From an uncultured Bacteroidales bacterium (GTDB taxonomy: Bacteria; Bacteroidota; Bacteroidia; Bacteroidales; Paludibacteraceae), in assembly GCA_902778935.1 (NCBI GenBank), contig CACYZT010000012.1:1-43728 (forward strand): a stretch of DNA of 43,728 bases, given 5' to 3'. This document shows positions 16,351-40,769 of this stretch, one piece after another (position 1 is the first letter of the stretch; every line of letters starts with the position of its first letter). A program made the translations under genes and the position numbers. Under the pieces are notes generated by a model, which was not told the DNA's origin, did no database searches, and saw only the letters and a program-made list of their open reading frames with translations.

Positions 16351-17879
16351 CGCTGCTTGTGGCGGCTCTGGCGTACACCCTTTGGTTCGTGTTCGCCGGC
16401 TTTGGCAATCATCAAGACCCGCTCTACTGGCTCTATAAATACGAGCATTTGGAGGGTGGCTGGATGGCTGTCGGTACGTTGCTGACGGGCGGAGCGATTG
16501 TGAAGCTGTTAGGCGCCCAACTGGTATGGCTGCGGCTATTCGGTTGGCTGTGTACTGTGACGGCAATATCGTTGCCGTTTGTGTGCCTGTTGGATAATGA
16601 GCAACGGCGAGAGAATATTCATTGGCTGGCATTGACGTATATACTGATGGGTTACGGTGCTTTCCAGGAGTTCAGTCCCGGCACGCTGTCCGTACTTCTC
16701 TTGTCTGCTCTGTGGGTAACGAGCGTGAGCCGTTCGCCATTCGCTTCTCGTCTCTCGCCTATACTGCTCGGACTCGCCGTCGCAGCGCGTTTCCCGAATA
16801 TTCTGGCGCTGCTTGTATTGGTGCCGCTATGGAAGAAACGCAGTCTTTGGAATATCCCTATTGCGGCAGTGGCGGCAGGCGTGGTCTATCTGTTGGGTTG
16901 GTGGCTGGTTACGCCGGCTGCTACGGATGCAGCGATGACGAGCAGTCATGAACTGCTGTCCATGTTCACCAAACTATGGGAGAACAGTGGTAAGTTGGTG
17001 GGTTATTTACTCATGGCGGCAGGTGTGCTGGCGTTCCGAGAGAAGAAATACACCGGTTGGCTCGCAGGAGGTGCGTTGGTGCTGGTAATCGTCTATACGA
17101 TGAAGCCGTTACAGTGGTATAACACCGACCTGACGTACCTGCTGTCGGCGTTGGCACTCGCTTTGAGCGTTAGCGGTCTTTCTACTTTCCATCGTCCGCT
17201 CCTTGTAGGTGCAGCCGTTTTGAGCGTTGCTACGCTGGGTACTGACACGGCGTGGCTCAAACTCTTCCCAGCTGTGCTATGCCTGTTGCCTGTGGCGCTG
17301 ACGCAGTACAAGACCGTCGCCGAGCAGCGTTATCTGTACGAAGTGCTGGTGGTGCTCTGCGTCATGGTGGTCCTGCGTATGACGCATAATAGTGTAGGGC
17401 AGAGTGACCTGACGAAGGTGCAGACGTTCAGTTCCGTCTCGCCTTACAAAGGTATCGCCATTCGTGAAATCGAAGAAGAACGAATGATGCAGTATAAAGC
17501 GGATTTCGACAGCCTCATTGCCCCTAATCCCCTAACCCCTAATCCCCTAACCCCTAAACCACTCATCCTTTCTATCGGACAAGAGATGCATCTGATGCGT
17601 GCCGTGACCGGTTGCGAAGCGGCGCGATACAATGAGTTCTGGTCGAATATCTTTGACTCCGTCTATACGGTTAAGTACCGCGATATCATCGAAGCGGAGC
17701 GGCCTATTGTGTTTTGCTCTTTCTCGCCGCAGTTCCGCTTCAAGCCGAGGAAGGACAAAGAGAGCATGCTGGAGAATATGTTACGCGAGCAGGGGTATCG
17801 CGAGATAGATAGAAGTAAATACAAATACATGATTTATATACCTCAATCGTCTAATCGTCAATCGTCAAATGGTAAATAA
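16320..17879 (+). CDS. Multi-spanning membrane protein with soluble C-terminus (GT-C/ArnT-like candidate)
   Basis: A protein of 519 residues with 10-12 hydrophobic helices. Early loop: FGNHQDPLYWLYKYEHLEGG, which has the acidic residue placement seen in GT-C first loops. A C-terminal soluble tail of about 140 residues ends in a repeat-encoded stretch. It is probably the periplasm-facing transferase that uses the lipid-linked sugar made by the genes before it; this is inference. In-frame repeats at 17521-17560 encode NPLTP twice. The last codons (QSSNRQSSNGK) come from another array, which also supplies the start of holA. Confidence 0.7.
   Translation: MRNYKHILSITLLVAALAYTLWFVFAGFGNHQDPLYWLYKYEHLEGGWMAVGTLLTGGAIVKLLGAQLVWLRLFGWLCTVTAISLPFVCLLDNEQRRENIHWLALTYILMGYGAFQEFSPGTLSVLLLSALWVTSVSRSPFASRLSPILLGLAVAARFPNILALLVLVPLWKKRSLWNIPIAAVAAGVVYLLGWWLVTPAATDAAMTSSHELLSMFTKLWENSGKLVGYLLMAAGVLAFREKKYTGWLAGGALVLVIVYTMKPLQWYNTDLTYLLSALALALSVSGLSTFHRPLLVGAAVLSVATLGTDTAWLKLFPAVLCLLPVALTQYKTVAEQRYLYEVLVVLCVMVVLRMTHNSVGQSDLTKVQTFSSVSPYKGIAIREIEEERMMQYKADFDSLIAPNPLTPNPLTPKPLILSIGQEMHLMRAVTGCEAARYNEFWSNIFDSVYTVKYRDIIEAERPIVFCSFSPQFRFKPRKDKESMLENMLREQGYREIDRSKYKYMIYIPQSSNRQSSNGK
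16733..16759. repeat. Possible inverted copy of the GGCGAA-type repeat
   Basis: The plus strand reads TTCGCC ATTCGCT TCTCGTC TCTCGCC; its complement resembles the GGCGAAT/GGCGAGA words at 4230-4333 and 10378-10429. It encodes SPFASRLSP, which could also be ordinary coding sequence, so confidence is low. Confidence 0.4.
17521..17560. repeat. Two perfect 15-base repeats inside the GT-C-like gene
   Basis: CCCCTAATCCCCTAA at 17521-17535 is repeated exactly at 17536-17550, then a 10-base partial copy. Reverse complemented and rotated the unit is TTAGGGGATTAGGGG, the GG version of the TTRGNNGA family. It keeps frame and encodes NPLTP per copy. Confidence 0.85.
17845..17870. repeat. TTRGNNGA-family array across the 3' end of the GT-C gene and holA start
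   Basis: AATCGTC occurs at 17845-17851, 17853-17859 and 17860-17866, followed by AAATGG that contains the holA ATG (17869). Reverse complement: TTGACGA, TTGACGA, TTAGACGA. The same AC version appears in opposite orientation at 31108-31137. Confidence 0.8.
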
Positions 17880-18903
17880 GTATAACGATATCATGACTGC
17901 CCTGCGCGCAGGCACGTACGCGCCGATATATATATTGTGTGGTGAGGAACCGTATTACATCGACCAGGTCTATTCGTTCATTGCCGACCATGCCTTGGAT
18001 GAGATGGCGCGAGAGTTTGACCAACAGGTCCTCTACGGACGTGACTTGCAGGGTGCGGATATAGCGCCGGTCATCGGCGCTGCACGCGGTTTCGCCATGA
18101 TGGGCGGACGAAAGGTCATTATCGTGCGCGAGGCGCAGGCGGTGAAGAAATGGGATGCGCTGGCCGCCTATCTGGATAATCTCATGCCCCAGACCGTTCT
18201 CGTTCTCTGCTATAACGGCAAACCTGACAAACGTCAGAGCGTTTGGAAGAAAGCGACGGACCATCCGCAGGTCGTGTGGCTGCAGTCCGACAAACTGCGG
18301 GACTACGAGGTCGAACGGTGGATTAACGCCTATATCGCCGATTTTAATAAAACCAACGGTCAAAGCCTCTCCATCGACCCTCGTATTGCACCTATTCTTG
18401 CTGACTATCTGGGTACAGACTTGTCAGCTATCGTCGGAGCACTGCAGAAACTGATGGACGGCCGACCCGAAGGCGTGAACACCATCGATGCGGCACTTGT
18501 GGAGCGCAATATCGGTATATCGAAGGACTATAACATCATCGAACTCCAAACGGCACTTATTCAGGGAGATATCGTGAAGGCAAACCGCATTACCCAGTAT
18601 TTCGCGAGTAGCAAGGACCATCCGATGTTTCGCGAACTGGCACCGCTGTTCACCTTCTTCTCGAATCTCCTTATGTACCATTATCTGCCCGACAAGTCGC
18701 AGGCAGCTGTGGCACGGGAATTGGGTATCAATCCCTATTTCGTCAAGGACTACGAGAAGGCGGCGAAGCGTTATCCGGCGGGGAAAGCGTTTCTGATAAT
18801 GGGTTACTTGCGCGAGACGGATGCGCGACTCAAAGGTATCAATAATCCGTCCGCGAAAGATGCGGACCTCTGGAAAGAACTAATCTTCCGAATTATGCAC
18901 TAA
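17869..18903 (+). CDS. holA: DNA polymerase III subunit delta
   Basis: A protein of 344 residues, the usual HolA length. Typical landmarks: PIYILCGEEPYYIDQVYSFI near the N-terminus, GRKVIIVREAQAVKKW, a mid region with TVLVLCYNGKPDKR, and the C-terminal collar helices including LGINPYFVKDYEKAAKRYP. It is part of the clamp-loader that puts the beta clamp on DNA. The start lies 11 bases before the stop of the membrane protein gene, inside a repeat array. So holA is probably expressed as the last gene of the polysaccharide operon or from a weak internal promoter. It overlaps the convergent DUF4296 gene by 24 bases. Confidence 0.92.
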   Translation: MVNKYNDIMTALRAGTYAPIYILCGEEPYYIDQVYSFIADHALDEMAREFDQQVLYGRDLQGADIAPVIGAARGFAMMGGRKVIIVREAQAVKKWDALAAYLDNLMPQTVLVLCYNGKPDKRQSVWKKATDHPQVVWLQSDKLRDYEVERWINAYIADFNKTNGQSLSIDPRIAPILADYLGTDLSAIVGALQKLMDGRPEGVNTIDAALVERNIGISKDYNIIELQTALIQGDIVKANRITQYFASSKDHPMFRELAPLFTFFSNLLMYHYLPDKSQAAVARELGINPYFVKDYEKAAKRYPAGKAFLIMGYLRETDARLKGINNPSAKDADLWKELIFRIMH

Positions 18904-19413
18904 CAGAGGCGATGGGACGTACGGCGCAGGGGCAAAGACGGGCATCGGTTGCCACATCGACGGCCAGCCGTGCTGCGTTACCCATAGTGTGCTGTCCATC
19001 TGCGCCTGCGTGAACACAGGTCGGTCCTGTGTCGTTTCGTCTATGTCCGGCGTCAGATGAAGGGCTTGCTCATGCTGCGCCACGAAGGCTTCTTCTTCGG
19101 CTTGCAGGTCGGCGAGCACTTTGGGATAAATCTTATCGAAGAGTTGCGGATGGGCGGTGTACCAGACAAGTGAAGAGTCGAATTGCGCCTGCGTCACGCC
19201 ATTTTTCTCAAGCACCTGAGCGTAGTATAGCGCTTTGTCCTCCGGCGAAGCCTGCGACAGACCGTGTATCTGCAGCAGAGCGTCCGCCTTATGCAGGTCG
19301 ATGAGCACCTTGCGCATCTCCCATGAATGCAATATCCCCTTCGGACGACAAGAGGGGAGAGTAAATACAATGGACAATAAACAAAGGACTAATATGGTTT
19401 TATTGACTTTCAT
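18880..19413 (-). CDS. DUF4296 lipoprotein
   Basis: A protein of 177 residues. Lipoprotein signal: MKVNKTILVLCLLSIVFTLPSC with the lipobox Cys at 22. The following region MRKVLIDLHKADALLQIHG, then EKNGVTQAQFDSSLVWYTAH, matches the DUF4296 family of Bacteroidota, often found beside lspA. The role is unknown; it should be anchored in the membrane facing the periplasm. It starts one base after the lspA stop, so the two are translated together. The C-terminal Pro-rich tail (about 150-177) overlaps holA in antisense. Confidence 0.82.
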   Translation of the reverse strand: MKVNKTILVLCLLSIVFTLPSCRPKGILHSWEMRKVLIDLHKADALLQIHGLSQASPEDKALYYAQVLEKNGVTQAQFDSSLVWYTAHPQLFDKIYPKVLADLQAEEEAFVAQHEQALHLTPDIDETTQDRPVFTQAQMDSTLWVTQHGWPSMWQPMPVFAPAPYVPSPLLVHNSED

Positions 19414-19414
19414 T

Positions 19415-19978
19415 TCAGTCCTGATTCTTGACTCCTGATTCCTGATTCAACTGCTTCAAGTAGAACAGAAGGATGACGGCCACGGCGCAGGTAATACAAC
19501 TGTCCGCGAAATTGAATACCGGACGGAAGAATAGCACCTCGCCGGCACTATTGCGGATGAGCGGGAAATAGAACATATCCACCACGCGGCCGTAGAACCA
19601 ACCGGCGTAGCCGAAGAGCTTACCGTAACATACGCAATCGATGATGTTGCCCAATGCGCCGGCGATGATGAAGGCGATGGTAGCGAGATAGCCCACCGGT
19701 GTCTCGGGTTTGCGCAGCAGGGTATGGATGTACCAGCCGAGCAGACCGACGGCTATCAGACGGAACAGCGTCAGCGCCAGTTTGGAGAACCACTCGATGC
19801 CGAACGCCATGCCGTTGTTCTCCACATAGCACAGCCAGAACCACGAGAACACTTCCCGGCTCTCGCCCAATTCGTAATGCGTGGCTATGTAGAGTTTGAT
19901 AGCCTGGTCGATGGCCACCGCGCCGAGCACGATGGCGATGACTAATATGCGTTTATTCCAAATCTTCAAATCTTCCAA
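19415..19978 (-). CDS. lspA: Lipoprotein signal peptidase (signal peptidase II)
   Basis: A protein of 187 residues with four membrane helices. Family motifs: IDQAIKLYIATH, VENNGMAFGIEWFSKLALT, the catalytic-Asp block GALGNIIDCVCYGK (the usual Arg after Asp is Cys), RVVDMFYFPL, and FNFADSCITCAV with the second catalytic Asp. It cleaves prolipoproteins, which the window encodes in at least five copies. The start is TTG 19978 inside an AAATCTTC repeat array that also encodes DLKI. The C-terminus (NQESGVKNQD) is likewise repeat-encoded, so both ends of this gene have been reshaped by repeats. Confidence 0.92.
   Translation of the reverse strand: MEDLKIWNKRILVIAIVLGAVAIDQAIKLYIATHYELGESREVFSWFWLCYVENNGMAFGIEWFSKLALTLFRLIAVGLLGWYIHTLLRKPETPVGYLATIAFIIAGALGNIIDCVCYGKLFGYAGWFYGRVVDMFYFPLIRNSAGEVLFFRPVFNFADSCITCAVAVILLFYLKQLNQESGVKNQD
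19418..19449. repeat. TTCCTGA-type array at the lspA/DUF4296 junction
   Basis: Units TTCTTGA, CTCCTGA and TTCCTGA on the plus strand (period 7). They encode the last residues of LspA, contain its stop codon, and end a few bases before the DUF4296 ATG. Confidence 0.65.
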
Positions 19979-20005
19979 TTTTCAAATCTTCAAATCGTCA
20001 AATCC
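19960..20005. repeat. AAATCTTC array at the metK/lspA junction
   Basis: Five 8-base units: AAATCTTC twice, CAATTTTC, AAATCTTC, AAATCGTC, then AAATCC. The metK stop codon and the lspA TTG start both lie in it. The 40706-40769 array has the same unit and ends in the same order (AAATCGTC then AATCC). Confidence 0.85.
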
Positions 20006-27455: not shown

Positions 27456-29494
27456 AACTGTTAGCAATTATATTTTCGGTGCTGCCGGCGATACTGGCAG
27501 GCGATTTTGTTCCGCAGACGCTCTCCATAGCCGAGCAGGACAGCATATTGAATGTACAAAGTGCGAAGGAAGAAGCCGCGTGTACCCGTTACCGGCTCGA
27601 ATACGAGAACGAGGAGAAACTATTTCGCCATTCGCGCGAAGCGGACTGGTTTGTGCTGGACTCGATGCGTCATACGCGTAAGCAACTCGGCGCAGGGCTT
27701 CAACTGGGCAAGGTGCGGGATGCCGTCATGTCCCCTAACGGCCGTTATGTGGCGTTCGCAAAAGGGAACAACCTCTATATCCATAAACTCGATTTCGGAA
27801 CCGAGGTGGCGGTGACCAAGGATGAGAACACCGACATCATCAACGGCATCGCCGACTGGCTCTACGAGGAGGAGTTCGGTACGACGGCACTCTTCGCCTG
27901 GTCGCCTGACTCCAAGCAGTTAGCGTTCGTCAAACTCGACGAGACCGAAGTGCCTTCGTTCAGCTGGCAGTACTATCTGGACACCTCGTACCCGACGACC
28001 GACAGCCTGCGTTACCCCAAAGCCGGTTTCCCGAATGCCAAAGCACGCGTGTGCGTCTATGACGTGGCTACCAAAGGCATCGTGACCATGCAGGTAAATG
28101 CGGACGATGTTTATTTCCCCCGACTGAGATGGAAAGACGATAATACGCTTATGGTGCTCCGCGTCAACCGCGACCAGATGAAGATGGAAGTGCTCTCTTG
28201 CAATTCCAAATCGACCGTCTCGCATCTTTTGTACAAGGAAGAGGGCAAGGACTGCTTCATCGACTACGCCCTTTTCGACGAGTGGAAATGGCTGTCGGAC
28301 GGACGATTCATCGTGCTCAGCGAGCAGGACGGCTGGCGACGCGCCTATCTGTACAATGCGCAGGGAGTCAAGCAGCGTGCGCTGACAGCCGAAGGCATGG
28401 ACGTGACCGCGGTCTATGCGATGGACGAGAGCACGCAGACGCTCTATTACCAAGCCGCACCAACGCCTGCTACACGGCATATCTATGCGGTGAGCCTCAA
28501 GAATCCCGACGTACGCATTCAGCTCTCTGAAGGCGAAGGCATGCACTCCGCACGGTTCAGCGAGGACGGCAAGAGGATGATTGAGTGCTTCCATAGCTTC
28601 GACACACCGAACCGCTATACGCTGTATAAAGTAGAAAGCAAAAAGACCGCTTCGCTCAAAGTAGAAAGGGTAATAGAGGACAATGCCGCGGTGCGCGAGG
28701 CATGGAAAAGCCATGCTCTCCCCGAGCCGGAACTGATGACCATCCACAACGGCAACGGACAGGAACTGGAGGCCATGCTGCTAATAGACCGCTCCGCAGA
28801 AAGAGCAAAGACCGCTTCGCAGAAAGAGCAAAGACCGTTAGTCGTGATGCACTATAGCGGTCCCGCCAGTCAGCGGGTACTGAACAGGTGGCGTAAGAAA
28901 TTCGAATATGCGTTGGTGGAAGCCGGCTACGCGGTGCTCATCGTCGATGTGCGCGGTTCGGACTGCCGCGGACGCGCTTGGCGCAATGAGACTTATATGT
29001 CGCTCGGACAAAAGGAGGCGGAGGACCTTATCGCCGCGGCTCAATGGGCGGCACAGCAACCATACATAGACGGCAATCGAATGGCAATTCTCGGTTGGTC
29101 GTACGGCGGATACGAGACGCTCTATACGATGAGCGAGAAGAATCATCCGTTCAAAGCAGGCATCGCCATCGCGCCCGTCACTGACTGGCGGCTCTACGAC
29201 ACCGGTTATACGGAGCGTTACATGCGCCGTCCGCAGGTGAACGACCGCGGATACGAACAGGCTTCGTTGTTGCCCCGCGCCAAGGACCTGACCGGTGAAG
29301 TGCTTATCATCCATGGCACAGCGGACGATAACGTACACGTTCAGCACACGATGCAGTATATCGAGGCTCTCGTGCAGGCAGACAAGCAATTCGAGATGCA
29401 ACTCTATCCTGATGACAACCATCATCTGCGCAAGGGCAACAACGCTGCGCACATGCATGAGCGAATCCTGCGATTCCTGAAGAAGAATTTGTAA
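27452..29494 (+). CDS. S9B-type dipeptidyl peptidase (DPP IV family)
   Basis: A protein of 680 residues with a probable signal peptide (MKLLAIIFSVLPAILAGDF). The N-terminal beta-propeller has typical repeats (DAVMSPNGRYVAFAKGNNLY, FAWSPDSKQLAFVKLDE and the W-L-Y-E-E-E-F-G block of DPP IV). The C-terminal alpha/beta hydrolase has GWSYGGYE with nucleophile Ser550, HGTADDNVHVQH with Asp625-626 and DDNHHLRKG with His657. It removes dipeptides, often X-Pro, from peptides in the periplasm. It is coupled to the secreted protein upstream. Two in-frame repeat insertions lie in the loop between propeller and hydrolase (28642-28668 and 28787-28837). Confidence 0.9.
   Translation: MKLLAIIFSVLPAILAGDFVPQTLSIAEQDSILNVQSAKEEAACTRYRLEYENEEKLFRHSREADWFVLDSMRHTRKQLGAGLQLGKVRDAVMSPNGRYVAFAKGNNLYIHKLDFGTEVAVTKDENTDIINGIADWLYEEEFGTTALFAWSPDSKQLAFVKLDETEVPSFSWQYYLDTSYPTTDSLRYPKAGFPNAKARVCVYDVATKGIVTMQVNADDVYFPRLRWKDDNTLMVLRVNRDQMKMEVLSCNSKSTVSHLLYKEEGKDCFIDYALFDEWKWLSDGRFIVLSEQDGWRRAYLYNAQGVKQRALTAEGMDVTAVYAMDESTQTLYYQAAPTPATRHIYAVSLKNPDVRIQLSEGEGMHSARFSEDGKRMIECFHSFDTPNRYTLYKVESKKTASLKVERVIEDNAAVREAWKSHALPEPELMTIHNGNGQELEAMLLIDRSAERAKTASQKEQRPLVVMHYSGPASQRVLNRWRKKFEYALVEAGYAVLIVDVRGSDCRGRAWRNETYMSLGQKEAEDLIAAAQWAAQQPYIDGNRMAILGWSYGGYETLYTMSEKNHPFKAGIAIAPVTDWRLYDTGYTERYMRRPQVNDRGYEQASLLPRAKDLTGEVLIIHGTADDNVHVQHTMQYIEALVQADKQFEMQLYPDDNHHLRKGNNAAHMHERILRFLKKNL
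28642..28668. repeat. In-frame copy of the AAAGACCGCTTCGC family in the S9 peptidase
   Basis: AAAGACCGCTTCGC at 28642-28655 is followed by TCAAAGTAGAAAG. It encodes KKTASLKVER. The same 14-mer and the peptide KTASLK occur in wecB at 7472-7490. Confidence 0.8.
28787..28837. repeat. 23-base tandem repeat in the S9 peptidase
   Basis: Two copies of a 23-base unit (28787-28809 and 28810-28832, one mismatch) plus GACCG of a third. The unit begins GACCGCTTCGCAGAAAGAGC. The duplication plus flanks keeps the frame and encodes RAKTASQKEQR. Confidence 0.85.
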
Positions 29495-29526: not shown

Positions 29527-30483
29527 ATGAAAAAATACGCTTTAGGTATTGACTTAGGTGGTACAGGCACCAAGTTCGGTTTAGTGAATGACGAAGGTAA
29601 AGTGCTCCGTTGGGACTCTATCCCGACGCCGCAATATCCGAATATCGACGAGTACTGCGATGTGCTCTGTGCCGGTCTCAAGCGCCTGGTGGCGGACGAA
29701 GGACTGACCATGGCGGACATCATTGGAATTGGTTGCGGTGCGCCGAACGCTAATTTCTATTCGGGCTGCATCGAGCAGGCACCGAACCTGCCGTGGAAAG
29801 GGGTAGTGCCGCTGGCTAAACTCATTAGCGAGCGCATGGGCGTCAAATGTACCATCACCAATGATGCCAACGCGGCTGCGCAGGGCGAGATGATTTACGG
29901 TTCGGCTCGAGGCATGAAAAACTTCATCGTCATCACCCTCGGTACCGGTGTTGGTTCAGGTATCGTGATTGACGGTAAACTGCTCTACGGACATGACGGC
30001 TTCGCCGGTGAGTTAGGTCACTGCAAGATAGACCACTCGGGCAACGGACGTCTCTGTGGTTGCGGTCAGAAAGGTTGCATTGAGGCGTACGCGTCCGCCA
30101 CAGGTGTGGCCCGTACGGCGAAAGAGATCGTCACTTCGACCACCCAACCCACGCTCCTACGTCAAGTAGCAGACATCGACCATATTACCTCCAAGGATGT
30201 CTTCGATGCCGCAGAAAAAGGCGACCTCGTAGCCAAAGAGATATTCGACTACACCGGTCATCTGTTAGGCGAGAAACTGGCGGATTTCGTTCATTTCTCC
30301 AGCCCGGAAGCCATCATCCTCTTCGGCGGTCTGACCAAGTCCGGTCACTGGATTATGGACCCGATACGTGAGGCGCTGGACGCGAACCTCATGCCGATCT
30401 GGAAAGGTAAAATCCCTGTTTCCATCTCCGTGCTCAAAGATAGCGACGCCGCTATCCTCGGCGCTTCTTCGCTCGCTTGGTAA
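29527..30483 (+). CDS. ROK-family sugar kinase (glucokinase-like)
   Basis: A protein of 318 residues. ATP motif GIDLGGTGTKFGLVNDEG at the N-terminus, catalytic Asp region TITNDANAAAQGEMIYGSAR, VITLGTGVGSGIVIDG, the ROK acceptor motif ELGHCKIDHSGNGRLCGCGQ and the zinc motif CGCGQKGCIEAYAS. It phosphorylates glucose or a similar hexose (N-acetylmannosamine is possible) in the cytoplasm. The next gene begins inside its last codons at a TTG. I see no convincing promoter in the 32 bases before it, so it may be read from the peptidase transcript. Confidence 0.92.
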   Translation: MKKYALGIDLGGTGTKFGLVNDEGKVLRWDSIPTPQYPNIDEYCDVLCAGLKRLVADEGLTMADIIGIGCGAPNANFYSGCIEQAPNLPWKGVVPLAKLISERMGVKCTITNDANAAAQGEMIYGSARGMKNFIVITLGTGVGSGIVIDGKLLYGHDGFAGELGHCKIDHSGNGRLCGCGQKGCIEAYASATGVARTAKEIVTSTTQPTLLRQVADIDHITSKDVFDAAEKGDLVAKEIFDYTGHLLGEKLADFVHFSSPEAIILFGGLTKSGHWIMDPIREALDANLMPIWKGKIPVSISVLKDSDAAILGASSLAW

Positions 30484-31118
30484 GACTAAGAGATATAGGA
30501 CATGCCCTTTACCCGTACGCAGTGTTTCGTACGGGTGAAGCGGTCTATCTGACTTTCGATGACGGTCCGATACCCGAGGTCACGCCGAAAGTGCTGGATA
30601 TACTGGCTCGATACGGCGTGAAAGCTACGTTCTTCATGGTGGGCGAGAATATAGACAAACATCCGGAAGTTTTTGCCCAAGTGATAGCAGCCGGTCACGC
30701 CGTAGGAAACCATACTTACAACCATCTCAAAGGATGGAACCACTCCTTTGAGCAGTATATGGCGAATGTGGAGAAAGCGCAAAAAACGATAGCGCAACAT
30801 TTGCCGAAGGATTATCCTGCTCCGGTTCTGAACCGGTTCCGTCCGCCGTACGGCAAAGCGACCTTTGCGCAACGCAGAGCGCTCAGTAGGCAAGGGTATA
30901 AGCTCATATACTGGGATATCCTAACCCGCGATTACGATGCCCGCGTCACGACGCAACAGATGGTCAGCAAGATTAAGCGCCAGGTTCGACCGGGCAGTAT
31001 TATCAATTTTCACGACTCGCTCAAATCGAACGAGCGTATGTTACAAGCCCTGCCGCAAGTCATCGAATGGCTGCAAAGCAAGGGATATAAGTTGGAGAAA
31101 TTAGAATTTGACGATTAG
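30477..31118 (+). CDS. Polysaccharide deacetylase (NodB domain)
   Basis: A protein of 213 residues starting at TTG 30477, overlapping the kinase stop. NodB motif 1 is VYLTFDDGPIPEVT (Asp28-Asp29), motif 2 is GNHTYNHLKGW (His79, His83). FRPPYGKATFAQRRAL (motif 3) and YWDILTRDYDA (motif 4) follow. A complete metal site suggests activity on N-acetylated glycans, such as peptidoglycan or chitooligosaccharide-like substrates. No signal peptide is visible, although the non-ATG start leaves the N-terminus uncertain. Its stop codon lies in the repeat that opens the next gene. Confidence 0.9.
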   Translation: MVRLRDIGHALYPYAVFRTGEAVYLTFDDGPIPEVTPKVLDILARYGVKATFFMVGENIDKHPEVFAQVIAAGHAVGNHTYNHLKGWNHSFEQYMANVEKAQKTIAQHLPKDYPAPVLNRFRPPYGKATFAQRRALSRQGYKLIYWDILTRDYDARVTTQQMVSKIKRQVRPGSIINFHDSLKSNERMLQALPQVIEWLQSKGYKLEKLEFDD

Positions 31119-31137
31119 ACGATTGACGATTAGACGA
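31108..31137. repeat. Perfect 15-base tandem repeat giving two alternative TTG starts
   Basis: TTGACGATTAGACGA at 31108-31122 is repeated exactly at 31123-31137. Each copy begins with a TTG in the same frame, so the Big_5 gene has two equivalent starts, 15 bases apart. The deacetylase stop (31116-31118) is in the first copy. It is the AC version of the TTRGNNGA family, also found at 17845-17870. Confidence 0.9.
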
Positions 31138-33021
31138 TTTATCATAGGAGTAGCCGCCGTCGTGCTTATGGCGAGTTGCGCGAACAGAGGTGTCGGTCCG
31201 CAGGGCGGTCCGAAGGATACGATACCGCCTATACCCTTGTTCTCTGAGCCGGAGATAGGGGCGCTCAATTTCCACGGCGACCGTATTGAGGTGACCTTCA
31301 ACGAGTATATCCAGCTCGATAACGTAGCGACCAACATGCTCATGTCTCCGCCGCAACAGAACTCACCGGAGGTCAAGGCTCGCGGTAAGAAACTGATTGT
31401 GCAACTCAAAGACACGCTGCATGACAGCACTACTTATACCATCGATTTCGGTCCGTCCGTTTGCGACTACCGCGAGAAAGTGCCGCTTCGTGGATTCTCG
31501 TTCTTTTTCTCTACCGGTCCCGAGATAGACACGCTCATGCATTTCGGACGCGTGTATGAGGCAGAGACGCTCAATCCCGTATATGGCATGCTCGTCGGTA
31601 TTCATAAGAACATGGACGACACAGCCTTTGTTCGTAATCCATTCCTTCGCATCGCCAAGACGGACTCTACCGGCGGTTTCCGAATCGGTAATATCCATCC
31701 GGGCAAGTACCGGCTCTACGCCGTCGATGATATCAGCCGCGACTACCGTCTGACGATAGGCGAAGCCTTGGCTTTTGCGCCTCAACCGATAGAGGTGCGT
31801 GCTCCGTTGGAACCCGTACAGTCCTTTGCGCCCGATACCGCTCTGCTGGATAGTCTGGCGGACGAACTAATGGAGAAGGACGGTCTGGACATGGATACCG
31901 CGCTCGTCCACCGGTTACAGTTACCCGAACCCAAAGAAGAGGAACTGTCCTGCCTATTCCTTTTCACGGAAGCGCAGAAGAAACTGTACCTGCAACGAGT
32001 AGTGCGGGAGGAGCAGCATAAGATTTCGATTCAGTTCTCTTCCTCGCCGGACAGCCTGATGACTTGGCGTGCGTTACGGCCGTCTGAAGTGGACTCCACT
32101 TTGTCCGACAGCGCATGGATAGACCCTTCGGAGCATATCCATCCGGCTTACTCGGCACACGGAGACACCGTCGTTTTCTGGCTGACGGACAGTGTCGCAA
32201 TAGGGCAGGACAGTATATTCCTGGAGACTCGTTACCGCCGTACCGATTCGCTTTATCATCTGGAGTGGTACACCGATACACTGCGGGCTTTCTGGCGTGC
32301 GCCTAAGCTGACAGCCAAGGCACTGGAAGCCAAGCAACGCGAATTGCGTAACCGGCGTCTGGAGCTGAAGACGAATGCCCACAAAGGCTTTGAGATGTAC
32401 GACACCCTTTGGCTGAGTTGTACAACACCGCTCGCGGTGGTACACGAAGAGGCATTCCATCTCTACGAACGTGTGGACACCGTGCTCACACCCGTACCGT
32501 TTGAGATTGCGCCGTACGACACGCTGCCTATGCGGTTTACTATCCTCGCTGACCTGCAACCCAACGGCGACTACGAACTGCAGCTCGACAGCGCTGCGCT
32601 CTACGATGCCTACGGATTTACGCATATAGCAGCCAACTACCCGCTGAAAGTGAAAACCCCGGCGGACTATTCCACGCTGCGCGTCATCCTCAAACCCTTT
32701 GAACCTAAGGCGCGAATACAGCTCCTGAATAGCAAAGATATCGTGGTGCGCGAACTGCCGGCTACCGAAGAAGGTGCATTCTTCGAGCACCTCAAACCCG
32801 ATACCTATTACTTGCGCCTATATCTTGACGAAGACGGCGACGGACGATGGACAACGGGTAGTTGGGAGCACCATCGCCAACCGGAACCGGTCTATTATTA
32901 TCCCGAAAAGATTCAAACCAAATCGAATTGGGACTTTGAGCAAGAGTGGGATTACACAGCGGTGGAGCAGGTTAAATCCAAACCCCGTGAACTGATAAAG
33001 GTCGTTACGAAAAAGAAGTAA
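31108..33021 (+). CDS. Ig-like (Big_5) domain lipoprotein
   Basis: A protein of 637 residues from TTG 31108, or 632 from the second TTG at 31123. After the repeat-encoded TIRRLTIRR comes a hydrophobic stretch and lipobox, VVLMASC, with Cys at 24. The mature N-terminus ANRGVGPQGGPKDTIPPIP and the domain up to about residue 130 (RIEVTFNEYIQLDNVATNML, GFSFFFSTGPEIDT) match the Big_5 Ig-like domain lipoproteins universal in Bacteroidota. The rest is beta-rich, with a C-terminal PDTYYLRLYLDEDGDGRWT segment. The role is unknown, probably at the outer membrane or cell surface. Its stop shares a base with the pnuC start. Confidence 0.88.
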   Translation: MTIRRLTIRRFIIGVAAVVLMASCANRGVGPQGGPKDTIPPIPLFSEPEIGALNFHGDRIEVTFNEYIQLDNVATNMLMSPPQQNSPEVKARGKKLIVQLKDTLHDSTTYTIDFGPSVCDYREKVPLRGFSFFFSTGPEIDTLMHFGRVYEAETLNPVYGMLVGIHKNMDDTAFVRNPFLRIAKTDSTGGFRIGNIHPGKYRLYAVDDISRDYRLTIGEALAFAPQPIEVRAPLEPVQSFAPDTALLDSLADELMEKDGLDMDTALVHRLQLPEPKEEELSCLFLFTEAQKKLYLQRVVREEQHKISIQFSSSPDSLMTWRALRPSEVDSTLSDSAWIDPSEHIHPAYSAHGDTVVFWLTDSVAIGQDSIFLETRYRRTDSLYHLEWYTDTLRAFWRAPKLTAKALEAKQRELRNRRLELKTNAHKGFEMYDTLWLSCTTPLAVVHEEAFHLYERVDTVLTPVPFEIAPYDTLPMRFTILADLQPNGDYELQLDSAALYDAYGFTHIAANYPLKVKTPADYSTLRVILKPFEPKARIQLLNSKDIVVRELPATEEGAFFEHLKPDTYYLRLYLDEDGDGRWTTGSWEHHRQPEPVYYYPEKIQTKSNWDFEQEWDYTAVEQVKSKPRELIKVVTKKK

Positions 33022-33686
33022 TGGTTCGTCGCAAATGGTTTGATATGGGGTTTCTGACCTTCGGACTGCTGGTACAAGTAGTCACGTACGCGATTACCCT
33101 TCGTCTGTCCCCTTCCTCTCTTTCACTCCTGTCGCTTATCAGCGGCTGTTTCGGCGTATGCTCGGTTTGCCTGGCGTCGCAGGGAAATATCCTTACTTTC
33201 TTCTTCGGCTTCGCGCAAGTAGCTACTTATACCTATCTCTGTGTCACCCAGCGTTTCTATGCCGAGATAGCCATCAATGCGTACTATTTCGCTACGATGA
33301 TTTACGGTGTGTTCGAATGGAAAAAGCGGCTCAAGAGTGAGGCATCGGGTGGGTTGACGGTCACTCCGCGGGCATTGTCTGTTCGTACGATTGTGGTTAT
33401 GGCAGTCGCTACGTTGGTTGGTTCAGGGCTCGTAGGATGGGGACTGGCTGCGTGGACGGACGATACACAGCCTTATTTGGATGCCTTTACGACAATACCT
33501 GCACTCGTGGCGCAGGTATTGATGATTCTCGTCTATCGCGAGCACTGGTTCCTTTGGCTCGCGGTGGATATACTGAGTGTGGCGTTATGGCTTCGTGCCG
33601 GCGATTATTGCATGGTTGCGCAATATACGTTCTGGTGCGCTAACTGTCTCTACGGACTTCGCCGCTGGAAATCTCTAACCCCCTAA
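33021..33686 (+). CDS. pnuC: PnuC-like nicotinamide riboside/nicotinamide transporter
   Basis: A protein of 221 residues with about seven membrane helices. Family features: FGVCSVCLASQGNILTFFFG, QRFYAEIAINAYYFATMIYG followed by VFEWKK, and a C-terminal VAQYTFWCANCLYGLRRWKS that matches the conserved W-N-x-YG-x-x-x-W end of PnuC. It moves vitamin B3 precursors by facilitated diffusion; thiamine or riboflavin relatives (PnuT, PnuX) cannot be excluded. TAATG overlap with the upstream gene. Its stop is inside the 33675-33708 repeat. No riboswitch is visible upstream, as it is in mid-operon. Confidence 0.87.
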   Translation: MVRRKWFDMGFLTFGLLVQVVTYAITLRLSPSSLSLLSLISGCFGVCSVCLASQGNILTFFFGFAQVATYTYLCVTQRFYAEIAINAYYFATMIYGVFEWKKRLKSEASGGLTVTPRALSVRTIVVMAVATLVGSGLVGWGLAAWTDDTQPYLDAFTTIPALVAQVLMILVYREHWFLWLAVDILSVALWLRAGDYCMVAQYTFWCANCLYGLRRWKSLTP

Positions 33687-33708
33687 TCCTCTAATCCTCT
33701 AATCCTCA
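33675..33708. repeat. TAATCCTC array between the convergent pnuC and DUF4837 genes
   Basis: TAATCCTC units in tandem (CTAATCCT three times) span the whole interval and include both stop codons. Reverse complement TTAGAGGA is the AG version of the family, as at 10173-10217. Confidence 0.8.
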
Positions 33709-34716
33709 CTCGTTCGGCATCTTGAGCGTATAAAGGATAGCTTCGCATTGACGGAGTGCGTTGCGTTTCTTCTGTCCAGCAGCGAAGATGAAGGTCTCAG
33801 CCGTTACGACACGGCCGTTCACCTGGTCCAGACGCGTCAGGCTGACGAACGGACCACCCATCGCTTCGCCGTCTAACATCTTCCATAAGCCGCGGGTCTC
33901 CATCGCATAGAAGCCGCCTATGCTGTCCCGCAGAGCCGGTACTTGGCGTGTCTGTGGCGGGAAATGTTTGTACTCCGTACCCATGTGACTGCCGGGCACT
34001 TGAGCGCTGACGATTTGTCCGAGCACGGCGTTGCGCATGGCGAGAATAGCCTCTTGGCCAAACTGCTCTTGAGCGGTGTAGGGGAAACTATAGATGATGA
34101 CATCCTTGCGCATAGGTCCTTTGTTGTTGCAGCACCATACGACATCGACGGAGTCATTGTTAACTTGTAATCGTTCGTTTTTAATTAGCATGAAGTCCTC
34201 GGGTATCAGCATGTCGTATTTCCACTGGTTGAGTTTCGCGCGCGCTTCCTTATTAGTGTTCGCACGATAGAAACGGATTTGCCGGGCCATCTCTTCGCGT
34301 ACGAACCACTCGCGGACTGCTTCTCCGTTCTCACGCCAATATGCCTGGAATGCCTCATGGCTCGGAGCCTGAATACGGATGAACGCCTGCGGCTTGGACC
34401 ATACGTCACGAGAGTGCTGTACTTTCGTCTGGGTGTATTTGTGTTCGTCCACATCGACCAGCAGGATATTTCGGCTCGATTTGAACAAGTCGTCAAACTG
34501 CGCAGGGGTGACATGCGACACCGTGAAATAGGGTTCCATCTGCGGCAAACCGTACATATCCGCACCCATCGTGGTACAGACCGCCTCTTTCTCCGACGGT
34601 TCGCAGATAACCAGACACTCATAGATACTTCCGGTCGCGGAAGTGAGCAGTCGTTCACTCTTCGAGCAACCAACCATAACAAGCGCTAAAAACGCAAAAA
34701 TAATGCTCTTTTTCAT
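33706..34716 (-). CDS. DUF4837 lipoprotein
   Basis: A protein of 336 residues. Signal MKKSIIFAFLALVMVGC has the lipobox Cys at 17. The following SATGSIYECLVICEPSEKEA and the later FTVSHVTPAQFDDLFKSSRN, then EFF-like C-terminal blocks (DSIGGFYAMETRGLWKMLDG, GGPFVSLTRLDQVNGRVVTA) match DUF4837, a Bacteroidota periplasmic lipoprotein of unknown role. The promoter is at 34739-34770. It is back to back with the AraC regulator gene, which might control it; that is inference. Confidence 0.88.
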   Translation of the reverse strand: MKKSIIFAFLALVMVGCSKSERLLTSATGSIYECLVICEPSEKEAVCTTMGADMYGLPQMEPYFTVSHVTPAQFDDLFKSSRNILLVDVDEHKYTQTKVQHSRDVWSKPQAFIRIQAPSHEAFQAYWRENGEAVREWFVREEMARQIRFYRANTNKEARAKLNQWKYDMLIPEDFMLIKNERLQVNNDSVDVVWCCNNKGPMRKDVIIYSFPYTAQEQFGQEAILAMRNAVLGQIVSAQVPGSHMGTEYKHFPPQTRQVPALRDSIGGFYAMETRGLWKMLDGEAMGGPFVSLTRLDQVNGRVVTAETFIFAAGQKKRNALRQCEAILYTLKMPNE

Positions 34717-35729: not shown

Positions 35730-35756
35730 AAAAATCCTCCATGTGGAGGATTTTTT
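35729..35756. terminator. Bidirectional terminator between araC-type gene and glyA
   Basis: A run of A, then ATCCTCC, loop ATGT, GGAGGAT, then a run of T. The symmetric A and T tracts let it stop transcripts from both sides. Confidence 0.92.
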
Positions 35757-35757
35757 G

Positions 35758-37062: not shown

Positions 37063-37088
37063 TGCTTCTCTATTTACGAATTTTGGCA

Positions 37089-37120
37089 CAAAGGTACAAA
37101 AAAAATTGCATATATGCAAG
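37089..37120 (-). promoter_or_regulatory. glyA promoter
   Basis: Minus strand: CTTG at 37120-37117, a 20-base spacer starting CATATATGCAA, TACCTTTG at 37096-37089. Confidence 0.82.
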
Positions 37121-37144
37121 AAAATTCAGTTTTTTGTGCAAATA

Positions 37145-37176
37145 TTTGCACATATGCAAAATTTGTTGTAAATTTG
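37145..37176 (+). promoter_or_regulatory. Promoter for the membrane pyrophosphatase
   Basis: TTTG at 37145-37148, a 20-base spacer starting CACATATGCAAAA, TAAATTTG at 37169-37176, ATG at 37248. Divergent from glyA. Confidence 0.78.
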
Positions 37177-37247
37177 CATCCGCTTTTGAAAGAAAACACG
37201 AAAAATAACTAATACTAATTCTTAAAAACACAGATTTTTAGACGTTT

Positions 37248-39461
37248 ATGAATGATTTAACTATTCTTATGTATGTCGTTTTGGCGGCATCCGTGTTAGC
37301 GCTCGGTTTTGCCTACTATTTCTATCGCTCGATGTTGAGCAAGGATGAAGGCACCGACCTGATGAAAACCATCGCTTCCCATGTGCGCAAGGGAGCTATG
37401 GCTTATCTCAAGCAGCAGTACAAAGTTGTGACGATTGTGTTCGTGGTGCTGGCTGTCGTTTTTGCCATTATGGCGTATTTTAACTTGCAGAATGGTATCG
37501 TCTGGTTCGCTTTCCTGACCGGCGGTTTCTTCTCCGGTCTGGCTGGTTTCTTCGGTATGAAGACCGCAACATATGCGTCGGCTCGTACGGCTAACGCGGC
37601 GCGTCAGAGCCTGAATGCGGGTCTGCAAGTCGCTTTCCGTTCGGGTGCGGTGATGGGTCTGACGGTAGTGGGTCTGGCGCTGTTGGACATCGCCGGTTGG
37701 TTCCTTATCCTTAATGGTACCGGTTTGCTTGAGCTGGTAGGGGCGGAAGGAGACCTCATCACCATCACGACCACCATGCTTACCTTTGGTATGGGTGCTT
37801 CCACGCAGGCACTTTTTGCCCGCGTAGGCGGTGGTATTTATACCAAGGCGGCAGATGTAGGAGCCGACCTTGTCGGTAAGACGGAGTATAACATCCCGGA
37901 GGATGACCCGCGCAACCCTGCTACTATCGCCGATAACGTAGGCGATAACGTAGGTGACGTAGCCGGTATGGGTGCCGACCTCTACGAGTCGTATGCCGGT
38001 TCTATCCTCGCCACGATGGCATTGGGCGCGTCGGCGTTTGCCACTTCGGCTGTGGAAGGAATGCAGCTCAAAGCCGTGTTGGCGCCTTCGCTTATCGCTG
38101 CCTGCGGTGTGCTGCTGTCCATCATCGGTATTTATATGGTGAAAACCAAAGAGGGCGCGGGTATGAAAGAGTTGCTGCGTGCGTTGGCTGTCGGTACGAA
38201 CACCGCCGGTTTTCTCATTGCGGCAGTCACTTTCGGCATCTTCGCATGGCTGTTCGGTACGGAGACGGACCAGTGGTGGCAAGTATCGCTGTCGGTAGTA
38301 GTTGGTCTGATAGCGGGTATGATTATCGGTCAATCGACCGAGTACTATACCTCGCAGAGTTATAAGCCTACGCAGAAAGTGAGCGAGAGTTCGCAGACCG
38401 GTCCTGCCACCGTCATCATCAGCGGTCTGGGCTTAGGTATGCTCTCAACGGCTATTCCGGTGGTGACCGTAGGCGTAGCTATTGTGCTGGCTTATCTGTG
38501 TGCGAACGGTTTCCACGTGGAGTTCAGCGCAGAGAACCTCTCGATGGGCTTGTATGGTATTGGTATCGCAGCCGTGGGTATGCTCTCCACGCTGGGTATC
38601 ACGCTGGCTACGGATGCGTACGGTCCTATTGCTGATAACGCAGGCGGTAACGCAGAGATGTCCGGTCTGCCGGCGGAAGTACGTCAGCGTACGGATGCGC
38701 TCGATGCACTGGGTAACACCACTGCTGCGACCGGTAAGGGTTTTGCCATTGGTTCGGCTGCCCTCACGGCATTGGCTCTGCTGGCTTCCTATGTAGAGGA
38801 GATTAAGATTGCGCTCATCCGTACGGGCGAAGCACTGCCGAACGGTATTGAGGCGGCGAAAGCCACACTCGTGGACTTCATGGATGCGTATAATGTCAAC
38901 CTGATGAACCCCATCGTGCTCGTCGGTATCTTCATCGGTTCGATGATGGCATTCCTCTTCTGCGGCTTGACGATGAATGCTGTAGGCCGTGCAGCGCAGA
39001 AGATGGTAGAAGAGGTGCGCCGTCAGTTCCAGACCATCAAGGGTATCCTCGAAGGCAAAGCAGATCCTGATTATGCACGTTGCGTAGCGATATCCACCAA
39101 GGGTGCGCAGCACGAGATGTTGCTGCCCTCTATCTTAGCGATTATCGTACCTATTGTGACGGGTCTGCTGCTCGGCGTAGCCGGTGTGCTCGGTCTGCTG
39201 ATAGGTGGCCTGGCTACGGGCTTTGTGTTGGCTGTGTTCATGGCGAATGCAGGCGGAGCATGGGATAACGCAAAGAAATACGTGGAGGAAGGTCATTTCG
39301 GCGGTAAGGGTTCCGATTGTCATAAGGCCACCGTGGTGGGCGACACTGTAGGTGACCCGTTCAAAGATACATCGGGGCCGAGCCTCAATATCCTCATCAA
39401 ACTGATGTCGATGGTATCCATCGTCATGGCCGGCCTTACGGTGACCTATCACTTGTTATAA
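37248..39461 (+). CDS. hppA: K+-dependent membrane-bound ion-pumping pyrophosphatase
   Basis: A protein of 737 residues with about 16 membrane helices. The pyrophosphate site shows [40 protein letters not shown] then [26 protein letters not shown] and, near the C-terminus, [20 protein letters not shown]. The segment [18 protein letters not shown] has Ala where K+-independent enzymes have Lys, so it belongs to the K+-dependent class. Such enzymes in Bacteroidota pump Na+, sometimes with H+; ion choice cannot be settled here. It recovers energy from biosynthetic pyrophosphate. It is followed by a short repeat and a bidirectional terminator. Confidence 0.95.
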
Positions 39462-39480
39462 TAGCCAACAGCTAATAGCC
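39459..39480. repeat. TAATAGCC repeats after the pyrophosphatase stop
   Basis: TAATAGCC, AACAGC, TAATAGCC in tandem, beginning at the stop codon. Reverse complement TTGGCTA, TTAGCTG, TTGGCTA: a period-7 member of the TT-R-G family. Confidence 0.6.
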
Positions 39481-39513
39481 AAAAAAAACGGAGCTTTCGG
39501 GCTCCGCTTTTTT
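39481..39513. terminator. Bidirectional terminator
   Basis: A run of A, then CGGAGC, loop TTTCGG, GCTCCG and a T-rich tract. It separates the convergent hppA and cytidylate-kinase-like genes. Confidence 0.9.
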
Positions 39514-39524
39514 GTATGCTGTGC

Positions 39525-40091: not shown

Positions 40092-40102
40092 AATCGTAAG
40101 GC

Positions 40103-40690
40103 TTAAAATTCTACTTTCGGAGCGGTGCGGGCACCTTCTTCAGCCTCGAAATACGGCTTTTTCTCAAATCCGCACATGGAAGCGATGATGTTGTTCGGGA
40201 AACGGCGTACTTTGGTGTTGAAGTTACGCGCCTCGTCGTTGAACAACTGACGGGCCACAGCGATGCGGTTCTCCGTACCTTCGAGTTGCTGTTGCAAGTC
40301 GCGGAAGTTCTCGTTCGCTTTCAGGTCAGGATAGTTCTCTGCTACAGCGAGCAAACGACCCAAAGCCTGGGACAGCTCACCTTGTGCAGCCTGGAATGCA
40401 GCCAGTTGGTCAGCTGTGGCGTTCGCAGGGTCAATCGTGATCTGCGTAGCCTTGGCGCGCGCTTCGATAACGCCTTCCAGCGTCTCCTGCTCATGCGCCG
40501 CATAACCCTTCACCGTAGCCACCAGGTTCGGCACCAGGTCGGCACGACGTTGGTACTGATTTTCTACTTGTGCCCAAGCGGACTCTACTTGCTCTTCAGC
40601 CGATACAAGACCGTTGTACACGCCTACACCCCAGAGGATGATGATTGCCAGTGCCGCCAGCACTACAATCCAGATAGTTCCTTTTTTCAT
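40103..40690 (-). CDS. lemA: LemA family protein
   Basis: A protein of 195 residues. One N-terminal membrane helix (WIVVLAALAIIILWGVGVYN) is followed by the LemA helical bundle: VESAWAQVENQYQRRADLVP, NLVATVKGYAAHEQETLEGV and the C-terminal VRRFPNNIIASMCGFEKKPY then FEAEEGA. LemA proteins are membrane-anchored helical proteins of uncertain role and often pair with TPM-domain genes, as here. The 86-base gap to the TPM gene is almost entirely repeat DNA. Confidence 0.93.
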   Translation of the reverse strand: MKKGTIWIVVLAALAIIILWGVGVYNGLVSAEEQVESAWAQVENQYQRRADLVPNLVATVKGYAAHEQETLEGVIEARAKATQITIDPANATADQLAAFQAAQGELSQALGRLLAVAENYPDLKANENFRDLQQQLEGTENRIAVARQLFNDEARNFNTKVRRFPNNIIASMCGFEKKPYFEAEEGARTAPKVEF

Positions 40691-40705
40691 AATCTATAAA
40701 TTATT

Positions 40706-40769
40706 AAATCTTCAAATCTTCAAATCTTCAAATTTTCAAATCTTCAAATCTTCAAATCCTCAAATCGTC
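40706..40769. repeat. Eight-unit AAATCTTC array between the TPM and lemA genes
   Basis: Eight consecutive 8-base units: AAATCTTC three times, AAATTTTC, AAATCTTC twice, AAATCCTC, AAATCGTC. In sense direction the unit is GAAGATTT, the AA version of the family. Being 64 bases long it is not frame-neutral and lies outside genes. The array at 19960-20005 has the same unit and the same end. Confidence 0.92.

What the first reader, a model, noticed from the sequence alone, without database searches (positions are those of the whole stretch)
17845..40769. A degenerate short tandem repeat family, TTRGNNGA, placed on gene junctions and inside genes
Seen directly: arrays of period 7-8 bases, often paired as 15-base units, at 2194-2213, 10173-10217, 17521-17560, 17845-17870, 19418-19449 (TTCnnGA variant), 19960-20005, 31108-31137, 33675-33708, 39459-39480 and 40706-40769. 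When rotated and put on one strand they read TTAGGGGA/TTAGGGG, TTAGAGGA/TTAGAGG, TTAGACGA/TTGACGA and TTTGAAGA. The two variable bases are uniform within an array (GG, AG, AC, AA) but differ between arrays. Positions are not random: they contain or touch the stop codon of one gene and/or the start of the next. This suggests one repeat-generating process, and array-specific homogenisation suggests recent slippage or copying. I do not recall a description of this in Bacteroidota.
Basis: partly seen in the sequence, partly recalled or inferred. Interest (0 to 1): 0.75.

Follow-up and report, generated by a model that had tools for sequence, protein, structure and literature searches.

The report
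Spreading seven-letter DNA repeats between genes
In an uncultured gut bacterium and its relatives, short DNA words of seven or eight letters, repeated in rows, fill gaps between genes and loops inside proteins, differ between species at the same spot, and in at least one family appear to have been copied from place to place.

Summary
The genome is probably a ruminant-gut Paludibacteraceae MAG. Arrays of period 7/8 occur 67 times in 444 kb of it (0-1 after codon/dinucleotide shuffling) and 182 times in 706 kb of 38 relatives (2-3). They gather at gene ends: 35 of 67 lie within 30 nt of a start or stop (random mean 7.9). TTRGNNGA is one of many unit families. At the same junction or protein loop, species carry different units or none; sister loci about 95% identical show whole-array replacement, once at equal length inside holA. 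Units recur at unrelated loci above fair controls (137 of 2211 pairs share a 12-mer; reversed control 23). GACGATT arrays favour one start phase; a 26-nt pattern from their head occurs 83 times in 23 of 178 genus genomes, in 29 contexts among 38 copies compared, in many copies within a 100-145 bp imperfect palindrome. I favour copying plus slippage, tolerated at flexible sites. Tandem heptamers are known in cyanobacteria, Xanthomonas, Beggiatoaceae and some Bacteroidota, so this is a new variant of a known kind. The copying route is unidentified: MutS loss was excluded; reverse transcriptase and RAYT-like transposase gained no support.

The parts
4230..4254 (+). in-gene array, unit GGCGAAAG, glycosyltransferase gene 3882-4757
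4284..4328 (+). second in-gene array, same family, same gene
10168..10213 (+). in-gene 15-nt (7+8) array TTAGAGGATTAGAGG, read as GLEVRGLEVRGLEV, nucleotidyltransferase (PF14907) gene 9273-10376
   Evidence: L049, L051 and L057 have GLEV repeats at another position of the same protein
10376..10429 (+). junction array AAGGACGAAAGGCGAATGGG(C/A)G from the stop of 9273-10376 towards the start called at 10440
17521..17563 (-). in-gene 15-nt array TTAGGGGATTAGGGG, read antisense as NPLTPNPLTPK in gene 16320-17879 (called P16320 here)
17845..17877 (-). GACGATT-family array at the 3' end of 16320-17879 and the start of holA (17869)
19419..19448 (-). AATCAGG-family array at the 3' end of lspA; 27 nt including internal variants shared with an unrelated locus (L087)
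19959..20004 (-). array with GACGATT head and TTTGAAGA body; holds the metK stop and the called lspA start
31108..31139 (+). GACGATTAGACGATT (7+8) array holding the stop of polysaccharide deacetylase gene 30477-31118
33675..33707 (-). TTAGAGGA array overlapping the stop codons of two convergent genes (33021-33686 +, 33706-34716 -)
40688..40771 (-). array with GACGATT head and TTTGAAGA body between TPM-domain gene (40777-41601 -) and lemA (40103-40690 -)

Best explanation
The arrays belong to many families of short dispersed repeats with 7- or 8-nt units. In at least one family (GACGATT) short pieces have been copied to new places in the genome, where arrays grow, shrink and drift by slippage. 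Copies survive where length and sequence are flexible: between a stop codon and the next start, at protein ends, and in loops, where they must be stop-free (7+8 = 15 nt, five codons, is one way). Lineages differ in repertoire, so the same site holds different units in different species. In part of the genus the GACGATT family also forms a 100-145 bp palindromic, MITE-like element. Shown: abundance, period, placement, turnover, recurrence, preferred head phase, shared head sequence. Inferred: copying as the cause of recurrence in the other families, slippage as the cause of length change, tolerance rather than function. Unknown: the enzyme or route of copying.
For: Own sample 67 arrays vs 0-1 in shuffles, relatives 182 vs 2-3; 5 in 346 kb from 20 other Bacteroidota genomes. 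Recurrence: 137 of 2211 own pairs share an exact 12-mer vs 23 with one partner reversed and a mean of 2.3 (max 5) with letters permuted inside the period; 18-mers 32 vs 2. Same-genome pairs in relatives: 52 of 554 share a 12-mer, reversed 6; family sharing 73 of 554 vs label-permuted mean 29.6, max 49. GACGATTNGACGATT: 52 hits here, reversed 0; 11 of 60 other genus genomes have any; G003, nearest by holA, none. Start phase: 39 of 69 sites have exactly ATT before the first full unit; 37 of 69 heads within 12 nt of a gene end vs 2.8% of random positions. 26-nt head pattern (25 fixed letters): 83 copies in 23 of 178 genus genomes, own included, control 0; 29 contexts among 38 copies compared; two copies in different parts of one gene in G042. 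Same site, different units: metK|lspA 8 of 35 species with 5 families, before holA 10 of 38 with 7, lspA|DUF4296 13 of 35 with 4, P16320 loop 9 of 20 with 5. Replacement between close pairs.
Against: No copying enzyme found. My first recurrence null (pure repeats of random seeds, mean 1.3-1.4 pairs) was too easy, because real arrays hold more distinct 6-mers; with one partner reversed the count is 77 against 241 in the own sample and 529 against 881 in relatives, and a cruder 15-nt block permutation gave 99.5 against 241 but 1203 against 881 in relatives (it raises k-mer diversity of 7-nt arrays). So part of the recurrence is composition. The head evidence concerns the GACGATT family only, and this genome holds one copy of the 26-nt pattern. 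Some arrays begin with the gene's own stop codon as first unit (L072 12100, L077 6261), as local slippage would produce; some close-pair differences are whole units (-21 nt, L049/L052). Only 1 of 67 own and 4 of 182 relative arrays have a 10-nt inverted partner within 200 nt, no more than chance, so most are not MITEs.
Confidence: 0.55

Rival explanations
1. Independent polymerase slippage at each site, with a preferred 7-8 nt step (the proposal credited to Mrazek et al. 2007 in PMC4679880 and PMC4692102). Recurrence comes from biased composition. No copying between loci.
For: Sharp period 7/8; arrays whose first unit is the gene's own stop codon; unit-multiple length changes between sisters; part of the recurrence is matched by the reversed control.
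Against: Excess of shared 12- to 18-mers over reversed and permuted controls; shared 26-nt head pattern in 29 contexts; preferred start phase; unit replacement at equal length. MutS1 present in 41 of 41 genus genomes, own included, so mismatch-repair loss is not the cause.
Confidence: 0.25
2. Selected regulatory sites: arrays are binding sites or leaders that act in translation or mRNA stability at gene starts and ends, as proposed for TAACTGA in Beggiatoaceae.
For: Enrichment at starts and stops; five folded copies of the palindromic element beat shuffles (z -2.8 to -5.1).
Against: Arrays absent at the same junction in most relatives and of other units where present; 24 of 67 and 82 of 182 lie more than 30 nt inside genes; both orientations occur.
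Confidence: 0.08
3. Transposase-mobilised miniature element (MITE or REP) whose decayed copies are the arrays, moved by a Y1/RAYT-like transposase.
For: The GACGATT element is a 100-145 bp imperfect palindrome, some copies with ATTGACGATT at both ends; Y1_Tnp matches in 10 of 16 GACGATT-rich vs 2 of 16 other genomes.
Against: With a family profile the association fades: 13 of 16 vs 11 of 16; G042, G020 and G010 bear GACGATT repeats without a match (G020 is 63% complete); three GACGATT end patterns are absent, on the gene's strand, from the 14 fetched stretches of 3.5-4.5 kb; most arrays lack an inverted partner.
Confidence: 0.1
4. Assembly artefact of metagenome binning.
For: Most named relatives are titled MAG or uncultured.
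Against: Arrays are in frame inside holA and metK, identical letter for letter in some sister records, and present in records from several projects.
Confidence: 0.02

Closest known systems
Heptanucleotide STRR/LSSR arrays (Calothrix, Nostoc, Xanthomonas GGGAATC; PMC4692102 passages; Mazel 1990 and Mrazek 2007 recalled or seen as cited)
   Same: 7-nt units, dispersed at many loci, near genes; length and sequence vary between close relatives (stated for Xanthomonas)
   Different: Here many unit families, mixed 7/8 steps, frequent in-frame arrays in genes, whole-array replacement between sisters. In Xanthomonas 89-93% are intergenic and about 90% stay between the same genes.
TAACTGA direct repeats of Beggiatoaceae, Cyanobacteria and five Bacteroidetes (PMC4679880 passages)
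   Same: Heptamer arrays next to starts and stops, patchy distribution, no mechanism known, includes Paludibacter propionicigenes; Microcystis and Gramella carry other heptamers as well
   Different: In the Beggiatoaceae genome one unit dominates and related heptamers are rare; here a continuum of related units, a preferred head and a composite palindromic element.
Rickettsia palindromic elements and ERIC (PMC10969869 passages; ERIC length and operon placement recalled)
   Same: Short palindromes (RPE about 150 bp) in gaps; RPE also in frame inside genes
   Different: Here built of 7/8-nt units; most arrays are simple and not palindromic.
BrickBuilt MITE of Porphyromonas gingivalis (PMC4596501 passages)
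   Same: Bacteroidota; tandem repeats carried by a miniature inverted-repeat element
   Different: 23-nt repeats, always intergenic, non-repetitive leader and tail.

Membership tests
Heptanucleotide short tandem repeats (STRR/LSSR) | head-to-tail 7-nt units more frequent than chance | tested here: met
   lag 7 is the commonest in own (30 of 132) and relatives (123 of 289); shuffles
Heptanucleotide short tandem repeats (STRR/LSSR) | same unit at many loci of one genome | tested here: met
   GACGATTNGACGATT 52 hits at 37 loci; 12-mer sharing 137 vs 23 and 2.3
Heptanucleotide short tandem repeats (STRR/LSSR) | mainly intergenic (usual in the described cases rather than part of the definition) | tested here: not met
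   inside genes 27 of 67 and 85 of 182, partly 21 and 64, wholly intergenic 19 and 33; hence filed as a variant
MITE | terminal inverted repeats | tested here: not met
   arrays in general: 1 of 67 and 4 of 182 with an inverted partner; matching ends only in some copies of the GACGATT element
MITE | mobilised by the transposase of a related IS; target duplication | tested here: inconclusive
   no linked transposase found; target duplications not examined
REP/REPIN | 20-40 bp palindrome linked to a RAYT gene | tested here: not met
   no RAYT link found; arrays not palindromic
Phase-variable simple repeats | length variation within a population switches a gene | not testable with these tools
   needs reads or strains

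The most novel reading that the evidence does not exclude
A dedicated writing process with a 7-8 nt step stamps arrays of a lineage-specific unit into flexible sites, overwriting what was there, and so steadily rewrites protein loops and operon gaps in this genus.
Probability: 0.15. Interest if true: 0.85.

Novelty: new variant of a known kind. Interest (0 to 1): 0.6.

Why it matters
Why heptamers are so common among bacterial tandem repeats, and how one unit comes to lie at many unrelated loci, is open in the papers seen here (PMC4679880, PMC4692102). This genus offers many sequenced species in which array birth, replacement and spread can be followed site by site, including inside holA and metK. 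It also shows how protein loops and operon spacers can be rewritten quickly while the reading frame is kept.

Tried and rejected
Single consensus TTRGNNGA: too narrow. Slippage from random or flanking seeds: my first null was too easy and is replaced by the reversed and permuted controls; the excess remains but is smaller, and I lowered the main confidence from 0.60 to 0.55 and raised slippage from 0.20 to 0.25 for that reason. Loss of mismatch repair: MutS1 in 41 of 41 genus genomes, own included. Reverse transcriptase as writer: PF00078 in 9 of 41, own genome among them, but not in G048, which has 18 GACGATT hits; not needed, though not excluded here. RAYT-like transposase as mover: first look suggestive, profile search not, no GACGATT ends beside the fetched genes. 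The 32 genomes were picked by hand: 16 with GACGATT repeats (own, at least 3 hits, or at least 5) and 16 with fewer or none (G090 has one hit). Hairpins as a general feature: no excess of inverted partners. Insertion sequence with GACGATT ends: an inverse end was not found in the 27 loci scanned, mostly 3-kb stretches.

Literature searches; one search failed on its argument. The listings shown held no description of multi-family 7/8-nt arrays in Paludibacteraceae; only open-licence papers are held and listings were capped, so this is no proof. Seen as passages only: PMC4679880, PMC4692102, PMC3733652, PMC10969869, PMC4596501. Mazel 1990, Mrazek 2007 and Elhai 2008 are recalled or seen as cited, not read.
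Full report
Where it is. The window is contig C12 of a 2.18 Mb, 41-contig genome. Relatives found with the holA protein are titled uncultured Bacteroidales, Paludibacteraceae, Bacteroidia or (one) Porphyromonadaceae; where a source is named it is mostly a ruminant gut (sheep, goat, roe deer, buffalo, yak), once pig. That the window itself is such a MAG is inferred. All of metK, lspA, DUF4296 and holA are found in 35 of the 38 loci L031-L068, which gives syntenic sites.

The observation. TRF and a custom quasi-period scan (lags 2-24, neighbouring lags may switch, score at least 12) find the arrays. In 443,728 bases of this genome (20 stretches of 20 kb plus the window) there are 132 arrays; lags 7, 8 and 15 lead (30, 20, 16). 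In the 38 relatives (705,904 bases) there are 289, lag 7 at 123. Arrays that follow a 7/8 path with score at least 0.4 number 67 of 132 and 182 of 289; the other 65 and 107 were left out of later counts. Codon-order shuffling of called genes with dinucleotide shuffling of gaps leaves 0-1 of this class in the own sample (5 replicates) and 2-3 in the relatives (2 replicates). Stretches of 20 other Bacteroidota genomes (17 of 20 kb, three of 1-4 kb; 346 kb) hold 5, three of them in one genome.

Placement. With a home-made gene caller, 35 of 67 own arrays lie within 30 nt of a start or stop (random mean 7.9, maximum 14) and 85 of 182 in relatives (22.2, maximum 36); arrays of other periods are also found there (20 of 65, 31 of 107). 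At several operon junctions the array runs from the stop codon to a few bases before the ATG. In the window, 33675-33707 overlaps the stops of both convergent genes, and 19959-20004 holds the metK stop and the called lspA start. 24 of 67 and 82 of 182 lie deeper in genes, where they are translated, for example GLEVRGLEVRGLEV at 10168 and NPLTPNPLTPK at 17521.

Many families, recurring. Units include TTAGGGG/TTAGAGGA, GACGATT(N), TTTGAAGA, GGACAATG, TAAATCG, GTTAAAT, AATTGAA, AATCAGG, CAGCCAA and GGCGAAAG. Of 2211 pairs of own arrays 241 share at least four 6-mers. My first null, pure repeats of random or flanking seeds, gave 1.3-1.4, but real arrays hold more distinct 6-mers, so it is too easy. 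With one partner of each pair reversed, which keeps composition and diversity, the count is 77 in the own sample and 529 (observed 881) in relatives; a 15-nt block permutation gave 99.5 in the own sample, but 1203 in relatives, above the observed. Longer sharing separates better: exact 12-mers 137 vs 23 reversed and 2.3 permuted within the period (own), 357 vs 174 and 48.3 (relatives; the observed and reversed counts leave out ten close species pairs, the permuted one does not); 18-mers 32 vs 2 and 90 vs 9. Sharing is concentrated within genomes: 52 of 554 same-genome pairs share a 12-mer, reversed 6; family sharing 73 of 554 vs label-permuted 29.6, maximum 49. So recurrence is partly composition and partly real kinship. 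The AATCAGG array at the end of lspA shares 27 nt, internal variants included, with an array in an unrelated gene (L087).

Repertoire differs between species. GACGATTNGACGATT occurs 52 times here, at 37 loci, its reverse never. In 246 other Bacteroidota genomes 6 have one hit each, and 7 have one reversed-control hit. In 60 other genus genomes 11 have hits: G048 18, G347 14, G029 12, G079 7, G010 5, the rest 1-2; G003, the nearest by holA (88%), has none.

Turnover at fixed sites. In relatives a lax scan (score 9) finds arrays at metK|lspA in 8 of 35 species (5 unit families), lspA|DUF4296 13 of 35 (4), before holA 10 of 38 (7), NTP5|P10413 4 of 13 (2), the holA linker 4 of 38 (3) and a P16320 loop 9 of 20 (5); close species are not independent. 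In L063, which matches G003 by contig coordinates and identity, none of the six window arrays of this region (10168 to 19959) has the same unit at the same site; the lax scan reports one weak array of another unit at metK|lspA. Five sister pairs at 94.0-96.3% identity and one at 88.5% show three behaviours: identical arrays, changes by whole units, and replacement. L047 has AATTCTC repeats where L043 and L042 have ordinary holA codons, 32 nt for 32 nt. L047 metK has 39 more nucleotides than L043, of the same unit. L048 and L051 hold different though similar units in a 41-nt stretch of equal length. L049 and L052 hold 26 and 95 nt of different units at metK|lspA. Several arrays could not be compared for want of anchors.

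A preferred head and a shared element. GACGATT loci were fetched for this genome (37 of 37), G048 (13 of 14), G347 (10 of 14) and G029 (10 of 12, one then dropped as identical to its G347 counterpart). At these 69 sites the first full unit is preceded by exactly ATT in 39 (20 of 37, 7 of 13, 6 of 10, 6 of 9), where an arbitrary phase would spread over seven lengths; 19 sites show no partial unit, some because the walk accepts two mismatches. 37 of 69 heads lie within 12 nt of a start or stop, against 2.8% of random positions. The window arrays at 40688 and 19959 have a GACGATT head followed by TTTGAAGA units. In G347 and G029 the head often continues into a sequence that is not a plain 7/8 repeat. 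The pattern GACGATTGACGANGTACGATTGATTG occurs 83 times in 23 of 178 genus genomes, own included (G384 14, G054 11, own 1), control 0. Among 38 copies compared there are 29 flanking contexts. Seventeen of 19 longer copies, two left out, were aligned (100-144 nt); five folded copies form imperfect hairpins and beat shuffles by z -2.8 to -5.1. G042 has two copies, one diverged, in different parts of one gene, antisense and in frame. This is copying, at least for this family. Most simple arrays have no inverted partner: 1 of 67 and 4 of 182, as by chance.

Mechanism. Copying plus slippage plus purifying selection fits best. MutS1 is present in 41 of 41 genus genomes. Reverse transcriptase occurs in 9 of 41, this genome included, but not in G048. 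Y1 transposase matches were commoner in GACGATT-rich genomes (10 of 16 vs 2 of 16), but a profile of the family found it in 13 of 16 vs 11 of 16, twice in this genome, and the fetched genes have no GACGATT ends nearby. The route remains open: ectopic gene conversion, template switching at microhomology, or an unknown enzyme.

Against my reading. Some arrays start with the gene's own stop codon as first unit, which looks like local slippage; part of the recurrence is composition; the strongest copying evidence comes from one family, and its longer form is nearly absent from this genome; most sequences are MAGs; the gene caller, thresholds and family criterion are mine.

Known or new. Heptanucleotide repeats are a known kind: cyanobacteria and Xanthomonas (PMC4692102, passages), TAACTGA in Beggiatoaceae, cyanobacteria and five Bacteroidetes including Paludibacter, with a range of heptamers in Microcystis and repeat-free close relatives in some cases (PMC4679880, passages). 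In-frame dispersed palindromes are known as RPEs (PMC10969869, passages), and a Bacteroidota MITE carrying tandem repeats as BrickBuilt (PMC4596501, passages). What I did not see in those passages is the combination: mixed 7/8 step, preferred head, wholesale replacement between sisters, and high frequency inside genes.

Noticed in passing
L082:703-1638 (-), own genome C15: RAYT-like Y1 transposase gene flanked on both sides by the palindrome CCTCTTCGTTAAGTTGCCCTAACTTCAGTTAGGGC: looks like a REPtron in Bacteroidota. A second gene of the family lies at L072:368-1363.
   Followed up: partly
L212 and L213, downstream of the RAYT-like frames: Repeated short palindromes (CGTCGGATATCATCCGAC; GCCGGATAATATCCGGC with flanking CGTCCATT) follow the gene.
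   Followed up: no
L075, L076, L077, L084, L085; possibly window 7435-7494 and 28786-28837: A separate 16-nt dispersed family GACAGACCGCTTCGCT; GGTCTGTCAGYG occurs 15 times in the own sample, reversed 0.
   Followed up: partly
window 42803-43347: 69-bp tandem repeats in a gene (42578-43726 by my caller); the unit looks like a BspA-type leucine-rich repeat (recalled, not searched).
   Followed up: no
G072 C8 and G091 C38, mutS1: mutS1 matches are split by 66 nt within one open frame near profile position 590, as an in-frame insert would give.
   Followed up: no
L038, L043, L047 at lspA|DUF4296; L058 12813-12848: G+C-rich palindromic filler (AGCCTCCCCTAAAGGGGAGG-like, and CCCTCCCTTGAGGGGGGGG) occupies sites where relatives have heptamer arrays.
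   Followed up: no
G042 (L015), P16320 loop: Relatives without the insert can read CAATCG or CAGTCG at the site (L036 ACGCAATCGCC, L065 ACGCAGTCGCC), like the end of the inserted CAATCGTC: possible microhomology at the junction.
   Followed up: no
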